Assembly (NCBI GenBank): GCA_031276545.1
Contig: JAISMW010000026.1
Span: 1-7,203, forward strand
Source: Tannerellaceae bacterium
GTDB taxonomy: Bacteria > Bacteroidota > Bacteroidia > Bacteroidales > Tannerellaceae
DNA length: 7,203 nucleotides
Direction: 5' to 3'
The position numbers and the translations under genes are program-made. The first letter of the stretch is position 1. Each line of letters begins with the position of its first letter. Below are positions 1 through 6,812 of the stretch, one piece after another. The notes under the pieces are model-generated. The model had not been told where the DNA came from and searched no databases. It saw nothing but the letters and a program-made list of their open reading frames with translations.

Positions 1-240
1 TTCCAAAGCAGAGAAAACCCGGTTAAACGTATCATGGGAAGGGATACCGCCCGGCAGACGCAGGAATGTTTTCAAGCATTCCGCTTTGGCCTTGCCGAAC
101 TCTTCCATATCATACCAACTCGTTACTCCACAGAAAAACAAAGCGATGGCGATAAACAAAATGTCTTCCAAATCATGCTCGCGCCTGCGTTCAACACGGG
201 GATCTATTAAATTCGAAAAATAACTCACAGGACTTTTCAT
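1..240 (-). CDS. ISAs1-family transposase, N-terminal 80 residues (cut by window edge)
   Basis: Reading the minus strand from ATG at 240 gives an 80-residue open frame running off the window. It starts MKSPVSYFSNLIDPRVERRR and contains LEDILFIAIALFFCGV, WYDMEEFGKAK and LPGGIPSHDTFNRVFS. That order (DPR, hydrophobic ILxIA block, EEFGKAK, LPxGIPSHDTFxRVF) is the N-terminal domain associated with DDE transposases of the ISAs1 / H-repeat type, recognised from memory. The catalytic DDE domain lies outside the window, so I cannot say whether the element is active. It is divergent from the LRR gene at 326; the 85 bp between the two starts must hold the element's end and the LRR gene promoter. Confidence 0.88.
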   Translation of the reverse strand, partial: MKSPVSYFSNLIDPRVERRREHDLEDILFIAIALFFCGVTSWYDMEEFGKAKAECLKTFLRLPGGIPSHDTFNRVFSALE

Positions 241-262
241 ATTATAAGATGCGTCAGCACTG
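1..262 (-). mobile_element. End of an ISAs1-type insertion sequence (boundary approximate)
   Basis: The transposase start at 240 means the element's end lies between about 241 and 306. On the minus strand the bases CAGTGCTGACGC (262 down to 251) begin with CAG, and I recall terminal repeats of this family beginning CAGG or similar, so 262 is my best guess. The other end is outside the window, so neither the inverted repeat nor the target duplication can be tested. The presence of the element is well supported; the exact boundary is a guess. Confidence 0.45.
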
Positions 263-285
263 TTCAAACGGGCGATTTTTCCCTC

Positions 286-293
286 TATATTTG
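286..293 (+). promoter_or_regulatory. Bacteroidetes -7 box for the LRR gene
   Basis: TATATTTG at 286-293 matches TAnnTTTG exactly and sits 32 bp before the ATG at 326, giving a leader of roughly 25 nt. No good TTTG lies 19-21 bp upstream; the nearest is GTTC at 262-265. The -33 position therefore falls at or next to the presumed insertion-sequence edge, so the element may have disrupted or donated it. Confidence 0.5.
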
Positions 294-325
294 CACGGTT
301 TTTCATACTATTAATACTATACATC

Positions 326-1690
326 ATGACACGTTTCATTTTTCTCTTTATTGTATATCTGATTCCTGTCGTTACTTTGGCGCAAAGCGGAACGGTGGGC
401 GAACTCTCCTGGACTTTATCCGACGGTACGCTTACCGTCAGCGGCACGGGCGCCATGCCGGATTATGAGGACAATGCGAGCCTTCTGCCGGATTATGATT
501 CCGGCAGTCCCTGGCAGCCGTACCGCGAAAGCATCCTCGCCGTCGTCATAGAAGACGGCGTGACCCGTATCGGAGACGAGGCCTTTATGTTTTGCGAATG
601 GATGGAGTCCGTCTCCCTTCCCGACGGGCTGACCGCTATCGGGAAAGAGGCTTTTAAGGATTGCGACGCTCTCACATCGCTCACCGTTCCCGGCAGCGTG
701 AAGACGATGGGTGAGGGAGCGTTTTCCTCATGCAACACCCTGACATCCGTCATCCTTCTTGACGGTATCACCTGTATCGGAGAAAAAGCCTTCTCCGCTT
801 GCTCCGCTCTGACCTCCGTCACCCTTCCCGGCAGTCTGACCTGCATCGAAGCGTTCGCTTTTTACTATTGCAGCCACTTGGCGTCCGTCACCTTTCCCGA
901 CGGCCTGACCCGTATCGGAACGCAGGCCTTTGACTGTTGCCGCGCCCTGACGTCCGTCACCCTTCCCGGCAGCCTGACCCACATCGGAGAAGGGGCTTTT
1001 ACCACCTCCGGCCTGACCTCCATCACCCTTCTCGACGGTATCACCGGTATTGGGAAAGGAGCCTTTTCCGTTTGCTCCGCCCTGACATCCGTCACCCTTC
1101 CCGGCAGCCTGACCCGCATCGAAGCGTCCGCCTTTGCCTATTGCCGCAGCCTGGGCGCCTTTACCGTTCCCCGCAGCGTGACCGTCATCGGAGCCGGAGC
1201 TTTTGCTTCCTGCAGTAGCCTGACCTCCATCACCGTGGAAGAGGGCAACACCGCCTATGTTTCCGACGACGGTATCCTGTTCAATCACGACAGGAGCAAA
1301 CTGATTCAATATCCGGCTGGAAAAACCGGCGAACGGTACACCCCGCCCGGCAGCGTGACCGTCGTCGAAGCGCGCGCCTTTGAAGGCAGTCTCCCGACCT
1401 CCGTCATCCTTCCCGCCGGCGTGACCCACGTCGGAACCGGCGCCTTTTACGATTGCTCCGCCCTGACGTCCGTCACCCTTCCCGGCAGCATCACCTATAT
1501 CGGAGAATACCCTTTTCTCGGCTGCACCGCCCTGAAGGATGTAACCGCCGGATGGCGCACGCCCTTTCCCATCGAAAACTTCGAGTCTGTGTCTGCCGAT
1601 TCCCTCACTCTCCACGTCCCTGCCGGCACAAAAGCCCTCTACGAATCTTCTCCGTCCTGGAAAGATTTCGGGACGATAGTGGAAGAGTAA
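326..1690 (+). CDS. BspA-like secreted leucine-rich repeat (LRR_5) protein
   Basis: A 454-residue protein with a signal peptide (residues 1-19, MTRFIFLFIVYLIPVVTLA, cleavage before QSG). Residues 20-45 form the cap that often precedes such repeats (GTVGELSWTLSDGTLTVSG then TGAMPDY). From about residue 68 there are roughly 12 repeats of 23 residues with consensus LTSVTLPGSLTxIGxxAFxxC, the Treponema/BspA LRR_5 type. An island at about 299-345 (VEEGNTAYVSDDGILFNHD, KLIQYPAGK) interrupts the array, as is usual in this family. The C-terminus (LHVPAGTKALYESSPSWKDF) is the common closing cap; no anchor or sorting domain follows. Relatives act as surface adhesins or ligand-binding proteins; the ligand here is unknown. 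The start is set by the promoter and signal peptide. A long antisense open frame over this gene is a by-product of the repeats. Confidence 0.9.
   Translation: MTRFIFLFIVYLIPVVTLAQSGTVGELSWTLSDGTLTVSGTGAMPDYEDNASLLPDYDSGSPWQPYRESILAVVIEDGVTRIGDEAFMFCEWMESVSLPDGLTAIGKEAFKDCDALTSLTVPGSVKTMGEGAFSSCNTLTSVILLDGITCIGEKAFSACSALTSVTLPGSLTCIEAFAFYYCSHLASVTFPDGLTRIGTQAFDCCRALTSVTLPGSLTHIGEGAFTTSGLTSITLLDGITGIGKGAFSVCSALTSVTLPGSLTRIEASAFAYCRSLGAFTVPRSVTVIGAGAFASCSSLTSITVEEGNTAYVSDDGILFNHDRSKLIQYPAGKTGERYTPPGSVTVVEARAFEGSLPTSVILPAGVTHVGTGAFYDCSALTSVTLPGSITYIGEYPFLGCTALKDVTAGWRTPFPIENFESVSADSLTLHVPAGTKALYESSPSWKDFGTIVEE
740..1150 (+). repeat. Duplicated two-LRR module (138 bp) inside the BspA-like gene
   Basis: Residues 139-184 (nt 740-877) and 230-275 (nt 1013-1150) are two copies of a 46-residue pair of repeats. 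The first half of each reads LLDGITxIG...AFSxCSA and the second LTSVTLPGSLTxIEAxAF. Ordinary neighbouring repeats are less alike. The DNA block TCCGTCACCCTTCCCGGCAG recurs at about 818, 954, 1088 and 1470. The spacings are multiples of the 69-bp repeat, or one codon short of that where the TTSG repeat has lost a residue. This points to growth of the array by recombination between repeats. Confidence 0.7.
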
Positions 1691-1692
1691 CC

Positions 1693-2985
1693 TCAAGAGT
1701 CGCCTCCGCCGCCGCGATATGATAGGTGATACCCGCCTTCCGCATCCTTTTCCGGTACATATCCTTCGGTTAGCTCCAGCAGCCATCCGTCGCCCTCGAC
1801 CCTTCTTCCTTCTGTCCGGACGGGATTTGTGATGGACACTTTGTCCCAGCGGGCGCTCACCAGCGCGCCCTTGCGGACAGTCAGGACGCCCCAGCGGTCG
1901 GAGACACGCAGGGTGGGGTAAACGGAGCCTTCGTCTCCTAAGGGTACAATGTTGCCGGGGTCGAAGGAAATGCTCATCTGCTCGAACCGTATCTCGAAAT
2001 GGGGCTGTTCGACAAGCAGGCGCTTGTATCCGTCAACGAGCGCCCGGTTCTTTTCCTCCCTTTCTGTTTCTTCCTGCAGGATGGCCGCCCCGCCGTAATC
2101 GCCGGACAGGCTGTCTGCCGTTTCTTTTAAATCCGGGGGTATCTGTATAGCAAAAGCCCTGATGAAATAATCCGTCAAACCGGTTTCTGCCGTAATTTCC
2201 CTGTTCCAGTTCTTATTCTCCTTATACAGCAGGTAGCCGTAGGCCGGAACCGTGTAATACGCAAACGAGCGGACAAAGGTAGGACGGGAAATAAAGGCAT
2301 CCATGCTGTGAGCCAAATGTTCTCCGGCCTGCCTGCCGCTCCTTCCGCTGACGACGGCCCCGGTAAATTCCGCCAGTCCCTCGTTCAGCTCCAGGAGATT
2401 TTCCGCCGTCGGCGAACCTTCATACAGGCTGTGACGGTATTTCCTGAACACCATGGCATGGGAAAGATGCCGCCGCTGCTCCTTTTTCGACAAAGACCGG
2501 ACAGCCTTTTTCAGCGCTTCCAACTCCAGGCGCAGATATACTCTGCCGTGCTTTTGATCGAGGTGGCGGTTGTCGGCATCACGAAGCACAAAACCCAGGG
2601 AAGGCTGCACCGTATGAAACAGTTCATGAGCCAGCAGGCTCAGCCTGTCGTGCTTTCCGGGAGGGAGCGGAAGCATAATCATAGCCCATCTTTTCCCGTT
2701 CCAGTCCATCGAGGTATTGGCAAAATTCACGCTGTCGGGCAAAATGCCCGTATAGATATCGCCGCAACGCGTCAGAACATGCGTCGCATCCGGTTCATTG
2801 GCAAAAATCCGCCGAGTCTGAGGGTCAATCAGCAGCATAGCGCCGTACAAATCCCTGCCCCAGAGTCCGGCATATTTTTTTGTCGCCTTTTTTATTTCGC
2901 GAAAGGAAGCAGGGAGATTCTTCTGCAAATCCGGCGGTATCTGTCCCGCTGCACCGGGAACGGACAAAAGAAGAAAAGCAGACAT
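1693..2985 (-). CDS. Secreted gluzincin-like zinc metalloprotease, signal peptide probably frameshifted
   Basis: The 430-residue frame contains HELFH at 120-124 (HExxH zinc site and catalytic Glu) and NEGLAEFTG at 201-209, where E202 is the likely third zinc ligand as in gluzincins. H124 to E202 is longer than in M1 or M4 enzymes, and I do not recognise the exact family. The C-terminal third (from about 330) looks beta-rich and may be an accessory domain. From the in-frame ATG at 2985 the N-terminus is MSAFLLLSVPGAAGQ, a weak signal with no basic n-region. An ATG at 3014 in another frame gives MKANACILALCLLFFF, a far better signal peptide; one extra T in the T tract complementary to 2966-2969 would join it to LSVPGAAGQ. 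The gene follows the 233-residue gene after 27 bp if it starts at 3014, suggesting an operon. Likely periplasmic or surface; substrate unknown. Confidence 0.75.
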   Translation of the reverse strand: MSAFLLLSVPGAAGQIPPDLQKNLPASFREIKKATKKYAGLWGRDLYGAMLLIDPQTRRIFANEPDATHVLTRCGDIYTGILPDSVNFANTSMDWNGKRWAMIMLPLPPGKHDRLSLLAHELFHTVQPSLGFVLRDADNRHLDQKHGRVYLRLELEALKKAVRSLSKKEQRRHLSHAMVFRKYRHSLYEGSPTAENLLELNEGLAEFTGAVVSGRSGRQAGEHLAHSMDAFISRPTFVRSFAYYTVPAYGYLLYKENKNWNREITAETGLTDYFIRAFAIQIPPDLKETADSLSGDYGGAAILQEETEREEKNRALVDGYKRLLVEQPHFEIRFEQMSISFDPGNIVPLGDEGSVYPTLRVSDRWGVLTVRKGALVSARWDKVSITNPVRTEGRRVEGDGWLLELTEGYVPEKDAEGGYHLSYRGGGGDS

Positions 2986-3041: not shown

Positions 3042-3743
3042 CTACGGAACGTAGGCCATTTTGATGGGACTCCAGGGGCCTTTCCCGCCGCGCGTATTTT
3101 CCCAGCGCATGGCCAGATAGACGGCGCGTCCGTGGTCTTTGCCGTGGAACGGCAGGATAATGGGCGAAGAGGTATGGAGTGCGGAATTAAGCAGATCGTT
3201 GGCGTCGATAACCGGCGTTTCGGAAAACATCCAGCGCAGTTCCGCGCCGAGTTGTCCGGCGGGCTTGCCCTTCCTGACAGCGGCGGCGGCGAAAGTGTAA
3301 TAGTGGATGCTGAGGCGGTGATCTTCCAGCGTCGTGATGCTGAAGCCCGGCGCTTCGGCAGCCACGCGCGAGGAACTGCGCCGCCCGAACGGACGGATGG
3401 GAAAGCCCATTGCTTCGAGGTCTGCATCGGTCACCAGCGGATTTCCCTTCATCATCCGGTAAAGCTCCCGGTAGCCGGTCGTAAACGTTTTTTGGGCGCC
3501 TTTCATCTGTACAATGATGATGGGGGTGCGCGTAGCGGGGTTCGACCAAGCCCTATACGCCTCCGCATAAGGATCCAAAGCCTTTTCGCAGAACATTTCC
3601 TTATACCATTTCCCCTGCGGTGCGGTCGGTTCCATTCCGAAGCGGTTGAGGTTTGCATTGATATGGGGCACGGTCATTTCCGTAACCATTTCATAGACTT
3701 TGGGTCTGGCCTGGGGCAGCCAGTCTAAACGTTGGTGTCTCAT
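3042..3743 (-). CDS. Uncharacterised 233-residue Bacteroidetes protein
   Basis: The protein runs from MRHQRLDWLPQARPKVYEMV to GPWSPIKMAYVP. I recognise the type from Bacteroidetes genomes: about 220 residues, an N-terminal helical part with PQGKW and a DP-rich stretch (residues 42-70), YRELYRMMKGNPLVTDADL near 93-111, a variable middle, then HYYTFAAAA, GKPAGQLGAELRW and a C-terminal block VYLAMRWENTRGGKGPWSPI. I know no Pfam name or function. The C-terminal third reads as beta strands, possibly fibronectin-III-like (inference). There is no signal peptide or membrane segment, so it is probably cytoplasmic, unlike the secreted protease encoded 27 bp downstream. It is the first gene downstream of the 21-bp tandem array, 57 bp away. 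The antisense open frame at 3030-3728 is a shadow. Confidence 0.8.
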   Translation of the reverse strand: MRHQRLDWLPQARPKVYEMVTEMTVPHINANLNRFGMEPTAPQGKWYKEMFCEKALDPYAEAYRAWSNPATRTPIIIVQMKGAQKTFTTGYRELYRMMKGNPLVTDADLEAMGFPIRPFGRRSSSRVAAEAPGFSITTLEDHRLSIHYYTFAAAAVRKGKPAGQLGAELRWMFSETPVIDANDLLNSALHTSSPIILPFHGKDHGRAVYLAMRWENTRGGKGPWSPIKMAYVP

Positions 3744-3800
3744 CTTTTCTGTTTAAATTATAATCTATCTGTTTGCATTCAAAAAAGTTCCTGTCACGAC

Positions 3801-4199
3801 TGCAAATATAGGGACAATGATTGCAAATAGTACTTAAATTACTGCAAATACTACAATAGTGAATGTAAATGTTACAATAATGAATATAAATATTTAAATA
3901 AGTAATGCAAATATTATTAGAAGTAATGCAAATGTTCCAATAAGTAATGCAAATATTGCTGGAAGGAACGCAAATATTGGAATAAGTAATGCAAATATTG
4001 CTGGAAGGAATGCAAATATTCAAAGAAGTAATGCAAATATTGCTGGAAGGAATGCAAATATTCAAAGAAGTAATGCAAATATTGGCGGAAGGAACGCAAA
4101 TATTCAAAGAAGTAATGCAAATATTGTAGGAAGGAACGCAAATATTGGAATAAGTAATGCAAATATTGTCGGAAGGAACGCAAATATACCGATAATGTA
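3801..4199. repeat. 21-bp tandem array, 19 units without indels, 42-bp higher-order period
   Basis: Nineteen units of exactly 21 bp start at 3801, 3822, and so on to 4179. The core is TGCAAATATT (or CGCAAATATT) followed by 11 variable bases. From unit 8 to 18 two types strictly alternate: type A tail xxxGGAAGGAA (GCT, GGC, GTA or GTC in front) and type B tail CAAAGAAGTAA or GGAATAAGTAA. Units 1-7, nearest the 3743 gene, are degenerate; units 8-18 are nearly uniform. AATATT is present in 13 units, always one per 21 bp, so on one face of the helix. On the minus strand each unit shows a TATTTGC-like box, but only units 1 (3803-3810) and 19 (4181-4188) make exact TATATTTG. The 3744-3800 gap between the array and the 233-residue gene holds nothing I recognise. 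Confidence 0.95.
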
Positions 4200-4210
4200 C
4201 GTACATGAAA
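4181..4210 (-). promoter_or_regulatory. Possible minus-strand promoter with a 12-bp palindrome at the array edge
   Basis: On the minus strand the last array unit carries TATATTTG (4188 down to 4181), an exact TAnnTTTG box. Eighteen bases upstream is TTTC (4210 to 4207), one mismatch from TTTG. The spacer consists largely of the perfect palindrome ATGTACGTACAT (4195-4206), a plausible operator. Transcription from here would read the whole array as a leader of about 430 nt for the 233-residue gene and protease. Unit 1 (3810-3803) is a closer second candidate but has no -33 partner. Confidence 0.35.
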
Positions 4211-4403: not shown

Positions 4404-4588
4404 CCTCTGGAGATCACCACCACCCCCGGCATCGACGCAATACGAAGTCTCTGCAGGTCAGTGCCCCCGGTGTTGACGCCATGCACAGCCTCCACGAGTC
4501 ACCGCTCCCCGGTTACGACGCCATGCGCAGCCTCCGCAGGTCAGTGCTCTCCAGCACCGACGCCATGCATAGCTTCTACTTGAAGATA
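4390..4588. repeat. Decaying GC-rich 42-bp tandem repeat, four units plus a partial
   Basis: Units begin at GACGCAAT or GACGCCATGC: 4390-4433 (44 bp), 4434-4474 (41 bp), 4475-4516 (42 bp), 4517-4558 (42 bp), and a partial 4559-4588. Shared blocks are GACGCCATGC, AGCCTCC and GGTCAGTGC. Units 3-5 translate as DAMHSLHESPLPGY, DAMRSLRRSVLSST and DAMHSF, a 14-residue repeat, but the 44- and 41-bp units shift the frame. A 93-codon open frame (4349-4630) across it is therefore probably not a gene; it may be the relic of a repeat protein or a non-coding repeat. Downstream to about 4860 I see no gene. Confidence 0.7.
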
Positions 4589-4990
4589 TACCAAATATAT
4601 ATACATTCTGTTATCTCACGGTGCTGTTGAGGCTACTGCACCTATTCGGCATCCTGTCCGGTGAAAGCGCTAATGGGTTGTAAAAATCCGAAATCTTGCT
4701 TAATGAAGATGACAGGATTCTGTTAAAATTCTGTATGCTGTTTGTGTATTTTTTTTGACTTTGCTGCCGTTCGGTGGATTGCTTCGGGGAGAGAACAGGG
4801 TTTTGCAGAAATGCAGCATCCTGTTTGACGGTTTTGGGAGATGAGATAGCTTTTATTAAGCCGTTATTTCAGGATGACTTACCGATTTGTTTTTTATATT
4901 GATTTATATTATTTACTGTTTTGGATTGAAAATTTATATAAAATAAGCAATCCTATTTTTGTCGTGCCCCTTTCTTAAAAACATTGCACA

Positions 4991-5877: not shown

Positions 5878-6306
5878 ATGAAAGAAAAAACATTTGCAAC
5901 ATCATCTTGTGCAGATCATCCTGCACATTCCGAACAAGTAGCCGGCAACGAACGGATTGTTGCGCAGTATTTCGACTATTTCAATCAGCACGAATGGGAG
6001 AAGATGGCCGATATGTATGTCGACGAAGCGGAATTTAAAGACCCTGCCATCGGAACGAAAATTGTTTCCATGACAAAAGCTGAGGTTGTGGCAAAATATT
6101 CGGAACTGGGCGAAATCTTTCCCGACCTTACGGATACCGTGATTCAAACCTATCCTTCGGGAGAGCACCACATCATCGTGGAATTTGTGACGGAGGGAAC
6201 CGCACCGGACGGTTCGAAGATGGAAATGCCTATCTGTACGATTTTCACCATTGAAGACGGCAAAATCACCAGGGATTTTTCGTATTACGACAATCCGCCG
6301 GAATAG
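5878..6306 (+). CDS. SnoaL/NTF2-like protein, paralogue A (probably cytoplasmic)
   Basis: From ATG at 5878 the protein has 142 residues: MKEKTFATSSCADHPAHSEQ, then an NTF2-like fold with the opening helix NERIVAQYFDYFNQHEWEKM, the DMYVDEAEFKDP strand, KAEVVAKYSELGEIFPDL, and closing strands including VEFVTEGTAPDGSKM and ITRDFSYYDN. This matches the SnoaL-like / nuclear transport factor 2 superfamily, small cone-shaped proteins that bind or isomerise small molecules; the substrate is unknown. The frame is open back to ATG at 5800, adding MMKKSFLHLYCIVFCLLLC, which looks like an export signal. I prefer 5878 because a consensus promoter ends at 5853, only 24 bp upstream. If a longer transcript exists, the 168-residue form would be exported. 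It is followed 53 bp later by paralogue B. Confidence 0.85.
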   Translation: MKEKTFATSSCADHPAHSEQVAGNERIVAQYFDYFNQHEWEKMADMYVDEAEFKDPAIGTKIVSMTKAEVVAKYSELGEIFPDLTDTVIQTYPSGEHHIIVEFVTEGTAPDGSKMEMPICTIFTIEDGKITRDFSYYDNPPE

Positions 6307-6359: not shown

Positions 6360-6812
6360 ATGATTATGCGAACCCTATCATTGTTTTTAGTTTTAATGCT
6401 CGCCGCGCTGTCCTGCGCGGAAAAGAAGACGGAGTCCAAACCCTCTGCCGGCAACGAAGAGATTGTTGCACAGTATTTCGAATATTTCAATCAGCACGAA
6501 TGGGAAAAGATGGCCGATATGTATGTGGACGAAGCGGAATTTAAGGATCCGTCCATCGGAACGGAAATCGTTACCATGACGAAAGCGGAAATCGTGGCAA
6601 AATATCAGGAACTGGGCGGGATTTTTCCCGACCTTAAGGACAGGGTGATTCAAACCTATCCTTCGGGAGACAGGTATATCACCGTAGAATTTGTAACGGA
6701 GGGAACCGCGCCGGACGGTTCGAAGATGAAATTGCCCATCTGTACGGTTTTCGCCATCGAAGGCGGCAGGATTACAAAGGATTTTTCTTATTACGACAAT
6801 AGTCAGGAGTAA
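6360..6812 (+). CDS. SnoaL/NTF2-like lipoprotein, paralogue B
   Basis: From ATG at 6360 (or 6366) the protein has 150 residues and begins MIMRTLSLFLVLMLAALSC, a lipoprotein-type signal with Cys19 as the probable acylated residue, then a charged linker AEKKTESKPSAG. The domain from NEEIVAQYFEYFNQHEWEKM to the end is about 81% identical to paralogue A over 119 residues (23 differences by eye). The frame also extends upstream to a TTG at 6315, but that segment (MQTNELFIKYSPLYF) precedes an obvious signal peptide, so 6360 is better. No separate consensus promoter is visible: TTTATTTG at 6310-6317 has one mismatch and no -33 partner. It is therefore probably co-transcribed with A and terminated by the hairpin at 6845. 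Binding partner unknown; probably envelope-anchored. Confidence 0.87.
   Translation: MIMRTLSLFLVLMLAALSCAEKKTESKPSAGNEEIVAQYFEYFNQHEWEKMADMYVDEAEFKDPSIGTEIVTMTKAEIVAKYQELGGIFPDLKDRVIQTYPSGDRYITVEFVTEGTAPDGSKMKLPICTVFAIEGGRITKDFSYYDNSQE

What the first reader, a model, noticed from the sequence alone, without database searches (positions are those of the whole stretch)
3801..4199. Unbroken 21-bp array (19 units) with A/B alternation upstream of an uncharacterised operon
The period is exactly 21 bp for 399 bp while the 11-bp tails vary, so length is conserved better than sequence. Units 8-18 alternate two tail types, giving a 42-bp repeat; units 1-7 are degenerate. The TGCAAATATT core recurs every two helical turns, placing AATATT sites on one DNA face. 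This is what I would expect of cooperative binding sites for a repressor, nucleoid protein or phased bending element, but I know no described element of this form. Recent copying of a 42-bp dimer alone would also explain units 8-18.
Basis: seen in the sequence. Interest (0 to 1): 0.75.

Follow-up and report, generated by a model that had tools for sequence, protein, structure and literature searches.

The report
Repeat-array leader of an unknown gene family
This DNA array of 21-letter repeats is one of about a hundred found in front of members of an unnamed bacterial gene family, mostly with the same repeat length but each with its own repeat sequence, which suggests that the spacing rather than the letters may be what matters.

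Summary
The array is real: 19 unbroken 21-bp units at 3801-4199 with A/B alternation. Its core sequence is not the point. The 233-residue gene beside it belongs to a multi-copy Bacteroidetes family without a Pfam or NCBIfam name, modelled as helices plus a fibronectin-III fold. Of 102 near-full-length family genes with at least 130 bp upstream, 91 carry a strong array of period 21, 42 or 63. Within 350 bp upstream it is 82 of 93, against 16 of 463 other genes and 6 of 94 downstream regions; in a later draw 16 of 26, all 16 at multiples of 21. Units differ between copies, sometimes even beside 95%-identical proteins. The -7 box TAnnTTTG is enriched in sense just distal of the arrays and not in the gap, so the array is probably a transcribed 5' leader. 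Best reading: a dispersed gene cassette whose fast-turnover leader acts in cis, held in period (two DNA turns) but not in sequence. Regulation is inferred; a passenger minisatellite is the main rival.

The parts
3801..4199 (-). Tandem array, 19 x 21 bp, A/B alternation in units 8-18; probable transcribed leader of the minus-strand gene
   Evidence: family-wide association
4181..4188 (-). TATATTTG, a match to the Bacteroidetes -7 box TAnnTTTG, inside the distal-most array unit; a weak -33-like TTTC lies 18 nt upstream (4207-4210, read by hand from the printed sequence). Putative promoter; perfect boxes also lie at 3803-3810 and 4592-4599
   Evidence: consensus in PMC7366714 (one passage read)
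3744..3800 (-). 57-bp gap between array and start codon; no TAnnTTTG box in it
3042..3743 (-). 233-aa gene, first row of alignment A1: N-terminal helices plus C-terminal fibronectin-III fold; no match in Pfam, NCBIfam or PADLOC at E 0.1
1693..2985 (-). 430-aa co-directional gene 56 bp downstream; possible co-transcribed neighbour, not conserved with the family
4424..4568 (.). Second, GC-rich tandem repeat of 42 bp (3.5 copies), 224 bp distal of the array; relation to the cassette unknown

Best explanation
The array is the 5' leader of a dispersed, self-contained gene cassette: promoter, then about ten 21-bp repeats, then about 59 bp, then the gene. SHOWN: arrays of this period stand in front of most copies of the family while unit sequence is not conserved; in several close pairs the units have changed more than the flanks; the proteins are under purifying selection; one copy has lost its gene and kept the array. 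SUPPORTED: transcription starts at or near the distal edge, so the array is transcribed. INFERRED: it acts in cis on its own gene (as a roadblock, attenuator or structured leader), and what is maintained is the two-turn DNA period and perhaps a weak dyad symmetry, so the sequence is free to drift while unit gain and loss tunes expression.
For: Association: 91 of 102 genes with >=130 bp upstream have a strong array at lag 21, 42 or 63. Within 350 bp: 82 of 93 family genes, 16 of 463 control ORFs, 6 of 94 downstream regions at these lags; of 12 control hits examined, 5 are a family gene's own array shared with a neighbour. Later genome draw: 16 of 26, all 16 at multiples of 21. Position: median gap 59 bp, IQR 49-80. 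Promoter: TAnnTTTG in sense in 32 of 85 distal 150-bp flanks (6.3 expected), antisense 12 of 85 (7.4 expected), gap 2 of 94 (3.5 expected); Fisher p 8e-4 for sense against antisense. Turnover: L105/L107 share 306 bp upstream (83%) and the gene region (80%) but not the array; L145/L148, dS 0.29 and dN/dS 0.08, have units at chance similarity. Length: indels are 174 of 2615 changed bases in family arrays, 106 of 445 in 24 other-period rows. Dyads: circular dyad matches 12.72 against 10.94 +- 0.15 shuffled; folding z -1.57 over 90 arrays. Cassette: no common neighbour (79 loci); relic L229 keeps array, gap and about 15 codons of the gene.
Against: No expression data. A perfect -7 box was seen within 150 bp in only 32 of 85, and stretches 245-400 bp distal also exceed the shuffles (13 of 77 sense with 5.0 expected, 15 of 77 antisense with 6.6 expected). 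The window has three perfect boxes, one of them at the proximal array edge. Eleven of 102 genes lack a strong array of this period; six of these show none at all (L040, L041, L045, L046, L123, L143), and 10 of 26 in the later draw lack one. In 4 of 14 close pairs the array aligns across. Dyad symmetry is moderate and not unique: mean z 1.14 for family arrays (n=94), 0.78 for other 21-bp arrays (n=15), 0.31 for other periods (n=28). No G-U bias: 145 G-U against 167 A-C. One copy has a 22-bp period (L013). Period could be kept by descent without function.
Confidence: 0.5

Rival explanations
1. Neutral passenger: the cassette carries a minisatellite from its ancestor; slippage and unequal exchange homogenise new variants quickly, and the period stays 21 because copying moves whole units.
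For: Related cassettes show gradual unit divergence (L084/L087, 14 of 21 matches at 77% protein identity; L062 keeps L099-like units at its distal end; array aligns across in 4 of 14 close pairs). A relic keeps its array after most of the gene is gone. Other 21-bp arrays exist away from the family (9 of 32 other arrays in 1029 kb).
Against: Unit sequence is at chance similarity between most copies while 91 of 93 strong arrays keep a multiple of 21; indels are rarer relative to substitutions than in other-period arrays, a small sample. Arrays stand in front of 16 of 26 copies in the class-wide draw.
Confidence: 0.3
2. Type III toxin-antitoxin-like module: the array RNA neutralises the downstream protein.
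For: Same order (promoter, tandem array, gene), monomer length conserved while sequence varies, many copies; the architecture is described in PMC5086642 (passages read). A T5 run follows the array more often than shuffled (16 of 94, 4.9 expected).
Against: Fold is helical plus fibronectin-III, with no endoribonuclease match among the listed hits; 78 of 94 have no T5 run after the array, so no general terminator; units do not follow the protein closely; no G-U bias.
Confidence: 0.05
3. Cognate operator array: each protein, or a host regulator, binds its own array cooperatively on one DNA face.
For: 21 bp is two helical turns; dyad-rich units.
Against: Four pairs of >=90% identical proteins have units at 9, 15, 10 and 16 of 21 matches, chance being 9.2, so one protein specificity hardly fits all; -7 boxes lie distal to the array.
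Confidence: 0.1
4. The array is a recombination or duplication platform that spreads the cassette.
For: Dispersed multi-copy cassettes, a relic, and many matches that start at contig ends.
Against: Paralogues' arrays mostly differ in sequence, so they give little homology; no recurring neighbour such as an integrase was found.
Confidence: 0.05

Closest known systems
BrickBuilt minisatellite/MITE of Porphyromonas gingivalis (PMC4596501; abstract and one results section read)
   Same: Bacteroidales, intergenic tandem array of a ~2-turn unit, conserved and variable halves of the unit, homologous leader and tail, promoter activity
   Different: 23-nt unit of one recognisable sequence in 19 elements, inverted-repeat ends, varied neighbouring genes; here 21 bp, units unrelated between most copies, tied to one gene family
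Type III toxin-antitoxin systems such as ToxIN (PMC5086642; passages read)
   Same: Tandem nucleotide repeats between promoter and gene; monomer length conserved better than sequence
   Different: 34-36-nt repeats in the ToxIN examples, terminator before the gene, endoribonuclease toxin, repeats conserved among close toxins; none of these holds generally here
TAACTGA heptamer repeats (PMC4679880; abstract and Bacteroidetes section read)
   Same: Intergenic tandem repeats, often upstream of start codons, present in some Bacteroidetes
   Different: One fixed 7-bp word with no pattern in downstream function; the units here show no excess at lag 7 and no fixed word

Membership tests
Type III toxin-antitoxin | Tandem repeat array between a promoter and the gene | tested here: met
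   array; promoter only by consensus box, 32 of 85
Type III toxin-antitoxin | Rho-independent terminator between array and gene | tested here: not met
   T5 run within 25 nt of the array end in 16 of 94; above the shuffled 4.9 but not general
Type III toxin-antitoxin | Endoribonuclease (ToxN-type) toxin fold | tested here: not met
   AF2 model with fibronectin-III matches; PADLOC, NCBIfam: only weak single-member hits, Pfam none
Type III toxin-antitoxin | Repeats conserved among closely related toxins | tested here: not met
   (95.5% identical proteins, 9 of 21 matches; other close pairs 10 to 16 of 21)
BrickBuilt | Common 23-nt repeat sequence in all copies | tested here: not met
   period 21, units mostly unrelated
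BrickBuilt | Leader and tail with inverted-repeat ends | tested here: inconclusive
   Shared upstream flank and 3' stretch in some close pairs; terminal inverted repeats not looked for systematically
Coding heptad repeats | An open reading frame through the array | tested here: not met
   No open sense frame in 19 of 94 arrays (permuted control 25%). Mean open frames exceed the control on both strands alike (sense 1.61 against 1.20, antisense 1.64 against 1.28)
Cooperative operator array | Shared recognition sequence bound by one protein | tested here: not met
   Units mostly unrelated between copies; binding itself not testable here

The most novel reading that the evidence does not exclude
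A sequence-independent, period-coded leader: a whole gene family is controlled by transcribed arrays in which only the 21-bp period, local dyad symmetry and unit number carry information, so that the control element can be hypervariable in sequence without losing function.
Probability: 0.3. Interest if true: 0.87.

Novelty: new variant of a known kind. Interest (0 to 1): 0.72.

Why it matters
An element that keeps its repeat length across many copies of a gene family while its sequence turns over is unusual, and sequence-based searches cannot see it. It ties an unnamed, sometimes strongly expanded gene family (29 matches among 64 first-look candidates, 29 of them scored, in one 2.3-Mb genome) to a testable cis element, and it makes a clean system for asking whether DNA period alone can be a selected signal.

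Tried and rejected
Core-specific element: the GCAAATATT core at 21-bp spacing is not a marker; 6 genome-contig loci, one beside a family gene.

Coding heptads: rejected. RNA-level hairpin selection: no sense/antisense difference in folding z and no G-U bias. Heptamer substructure: no excess at lag 7.

Trans targets: two G004 arrays searched in their own genome found related arrays elsewhere. By DNA alignment, L229 keeps the gap and the first ~15 codons of a family gene, L228 continues into a stretch 72% like a family gene up to the contig end, and L227 shares the upstream flank and array but shows no gene. An hmmsearch with the family model found nothing in these three loci, the gene pieces being short. 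Only these two arrays were tried.

Viral or plasmid origin: no relative confirmed in viral contigs with the profile or in plasmids with the window's protein. The pattern scan of viral contigs gave 40 loci that I did not examine.

Literature: searches listed no paper that, by title and start of abstract, describes this family or 21-bp arrays before it; three of them returned no paper. Only open-licence PMC papers are held. Papers seen: PMC4596501 (abstract, one section), PMC5086642 (passages), PMC4679880 (abstract, one section), PMC7366714 (one passage).

Selection and rows dropped: the window and L003 were found through their arrays, and genomes G001-G005 were reached through loci with a core array. 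The regions were picked by me from the matches listed (the list was cut) for near-full length and room upstream, not by their arrays. One search found 152 matches; after removing those without a start codon and duplicates (same first 200 bases) 117 genes, of which 106 near full length; 102 had >=130 bp upstream. One search used 94 arrays, including L023, L025 and L037, whose arrays are weak. One search was given 32 loci and dropped L160 and L174 (no start codon found); of its 30 rows (20 strong), 4 (L039, L044, L048, L049) had been looked at before, leaving 16 of 26. That test searched 700 bp, the control 350 bp. Start codons were chosen as the ATG nearest the model start, so gap lengths are approximate.

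Full report
OBSERVATION. The window holds 19 consecutive 21-bp units at 3801-4199 with no register break. Nine of 19 units carry the exact TGCAAATATT core. Units 8-18 alternate two tail types, so lag 42 (0.817) beats lag 21 (0.717). The array lies 57 bp from the start codon of a minus-strand gene, 3042-3743, of 233 codons.

THE GENE. The protein has no Pfam match. Searching 5.8 billion proteins gave 46 hits, one of them the window's own; those with a source name are hypothetical proteins, the few with an organism being Tannerellaceae and Dysgonamonadaceae bacteria. A profile of 34 sequences (the window, 32 relatives and L003; A1) found 646, of which 120 were listed. Pfam gives no match for any of the 34 at E 0.1; NCBIfam and PADLOC give only single-member weak hits. 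The AlphaFold2 model (mean pLDDT 93.4, pTM 0.60) has N-terminal helices and a C-terminal beta-sandwich; the listed structural matches are to fibronectin-III type domains in the PDB, and many in viral models are tail or fibronectin-III proteins. I see no signal peptide by eye; this was not tested with a program.

FIRST CLUE. A scan of genome contigs for three GCAAATATT cores at 21-bp spacing gave six loci, five titled as Bacteroidetes of several kinds and one as Myxococcales. One of them, L003, a Prevotellaceae MAG, has a 28%-identical relative of the 233-aa protein directly beside its array. The other five showed no relative at E 0.01 in the stretch fetched.

SYSTEMATIC TEST. The family was then searched by profile, without regard to arrays: 4 of 5 genomes of the seed loci, 6 of 198 of the order of G003, 26 of 99 of the family of G004, 17 of 295 of the class of G002 and 2 of 71 of the family of G005. 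These draws overlap and include the seeds, which had been reached through a core array; the tool names none of the groups. The family is patchy but often multi-copy. I fetched 80 regions of up to 20 kb, two of them in G200 without a known copy. Among 152 profile matches, 117 unique genes with a start were kept, 106 near full length. Of the 102 with at least 130 bp upstream, the best self-similarity lag is 21 in 71, 42 in 20 and 63 in 5; 91 are strong at these lags. The eleven others are nine with a weak or no signal (L123, L023, L037, L143, L040, L041, L045, L046, L025), one 22-bp array (L013) and one 8/16-bp array (L067). By source, 26 of 29 (28 genomes plus the window) have at least one. Without the window and L003 the count is 89 of 100.

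CONTROLS. Within 350 bp upstream, strong arrays at multiples of 21: family genes 82 of 93; other ORFs of at least 250 codons in the same regions 16 of 463 (Fisher p 8e-69; 37 of 463 at any period); 350 bp downstream of the family genes 6 of 94 (p 6e-33; 24 of 94 at any period, 12 of them period 14). Of 12 of the 16 control hits examined, five are a family gene's own array seen from a neighbour, and three are built of 7-bp words by eye. Copies are related, so these p-values overstate independence. In a later class-wide draw, 16 of 26 previously unseen copies, searched 700 bp upstream, had strong arrays (scores 26-210), all 16 at multiples of 21; 10 of 26 had none. In 1029 kb of fetched regions, 67 arrays lay upstream of family genes (64 of period 21) and 32 elsewhere (9 of period 21), so such arrays are not exclusive to the family.

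SEQUENCE FREE, PERIOD FIXED. Consensus units of 94 arrays are mostly unrelated: the best circular match between copies averages 9.3-9.8 of 21 for proteins under 60% identical, against 9.19 for shuffled units; 10.1 and 10.6 for 60-70% and 70-80%; and about 12.4 for the nine pairs above 80%. L145 and L148 have 95.5% identical proteins (dN 0.025, dS 0.294) and units at chance similarity (9 of 21), while L061/L111 and L147/L148 keep 15 and 16 of 21. Among 14 close pairs aligned with their flanks, by my reading the array does not align in 8, aligns in part in 2 and aligns across in 4; in L105/L107, L012/L016 and L037/L047 both flanks align and the array does not. At one conserved locus (L084/L087, five shared neighbours) units are 14 of 21 alike. 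So arrays descend with the gene and then turn over fast. Indels make up 174 of 2615 changed bases in period 20-22 rows of family arrays and 106 of 445 in 24 other-period rows (the second sample is small).

TRANSCRIBED LEADER. The Bacteroidetes -7 box TAnnTTTG (PMC7366714, one passage read) occurs in sense in 32 of 85 distal 150-bp flanks (6.3 expected) and antisense in 12 of 85 (7.4 expected). It occurs in 2 of 94 gaps (3.5 expected) and 2 of 94 arrays (5.6 expected) in sense. Of 35 boxes, 21 start 4-54 bp before the array. Farther out (245-400 bp distal) it is 13 of 77 in sense (5.0 expected) and 15 of 77 antisense (6.6 expected), so intergenic background is above the shuffles, and the strand bias near the array (p 8e-4) is the telling part. 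In the window a box lies in the distal-most unit at 4181-4188, with a near -33 element 18 nt upstream; others lie at 4592-4599 and at the proximal edge, 3803-3810, where the neighbouring TTTG is only 13 nt away (spacings read by hand). The likely transcript begins at the distal edge and runs through the array. In 53 of 85 no perfect box was seen, so this is support, not proof.

STRUCTURE. Units show more circular dyad symmetry than shuffles (12.72 against 10.94 +- 0.15), and arrays fold better than column-permuted ones (mean z -1.57, p 6e-11, 90 arrays). Sense and antisense behave alike, and G-U pairs are no commoner than A-C (145 against 167), so nothing points to RNA hairpins in particular. 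Other 21-bp arrays show a similar, smaller tendency.

CASSETTE. No neighbour family recurs in more than 6 of 79 loci. Searching G004 with two of its arrays found related arrays elsewhere. By DNA alignment L229 keeps array, gap and about 15 codons, L228 continues into a stretch 72% like a family gene up to the contig end, and L227 has the shared upstream flank and array without a gene. Copies multiply and at least one has lost its gene.

MECHANISM. Committed reading: a cis-acting transcribed leader whose period (two B-DNA turns) and perhaps dyads matter. Shown: association, position, turnover in several pairs, purifying selection on the protein (dN/dS 0.08-0.41 in the 16 closest pairs). Supported: transcription through the array. 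Inferred: cis control and helical phasing. Main rival: a passenger minisatellite inherited with the cassette. Type III toxin-antitoxin membership fails on terminator, fold and co-variation; BrickBuilt membership fails on shared sequence and period.

NOVELTY. Repeat arrays before genes are a known broad kind; a family-wide array of fixed period and free sequence did not appear in the listings, which cover open-licence PMC papers only.

Noticed in passing
window 4424-4568: A second, GC-rich 42-bp tandem repeat (3.5 copies; lag-42 identity 0.57, lag-21 0.35) lies distal of the array; it may be an older array of the same cassette or unrelated.
   Followed up: partly
window 326-1690 (+): BspA-type leucine-rich-repeat protein gene (LRR_5, E 2e-95), itself internally repetitive (135/69-bp periods).
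   Followed up: no
window 5881-6306 and 6360-6812 (+): Two adjacent SnoaL-like genes that look alike, apparently a tandem duplication.
   Followed up: no
window 1-456 (-): Open reading frame with a DDE_Tnp_1_assoc (transposase-associated) domain, cut by the window end.
   Followed up: no
L024 1248-1379 and L026 347-560: 18-bp arrays downstream of family-gene fragments in G003, a different period on the other side of the gene.
   Followed up: no
L228 210-769: Three different 21-bp arrays in series before a stretch like a family gene that ends at the contig end.
   Followed up: partly
L156 7735-8043 and L082 11922-12085: 21/42-bp arrays with no family gene next to them; possibly relics.
   Followed up: partly
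G214: 29 family matches (64 first-look candidates, 29 scored) in a 2.3-Mb genome, many at contig ends, an extreme expansion.
   Followed up: no
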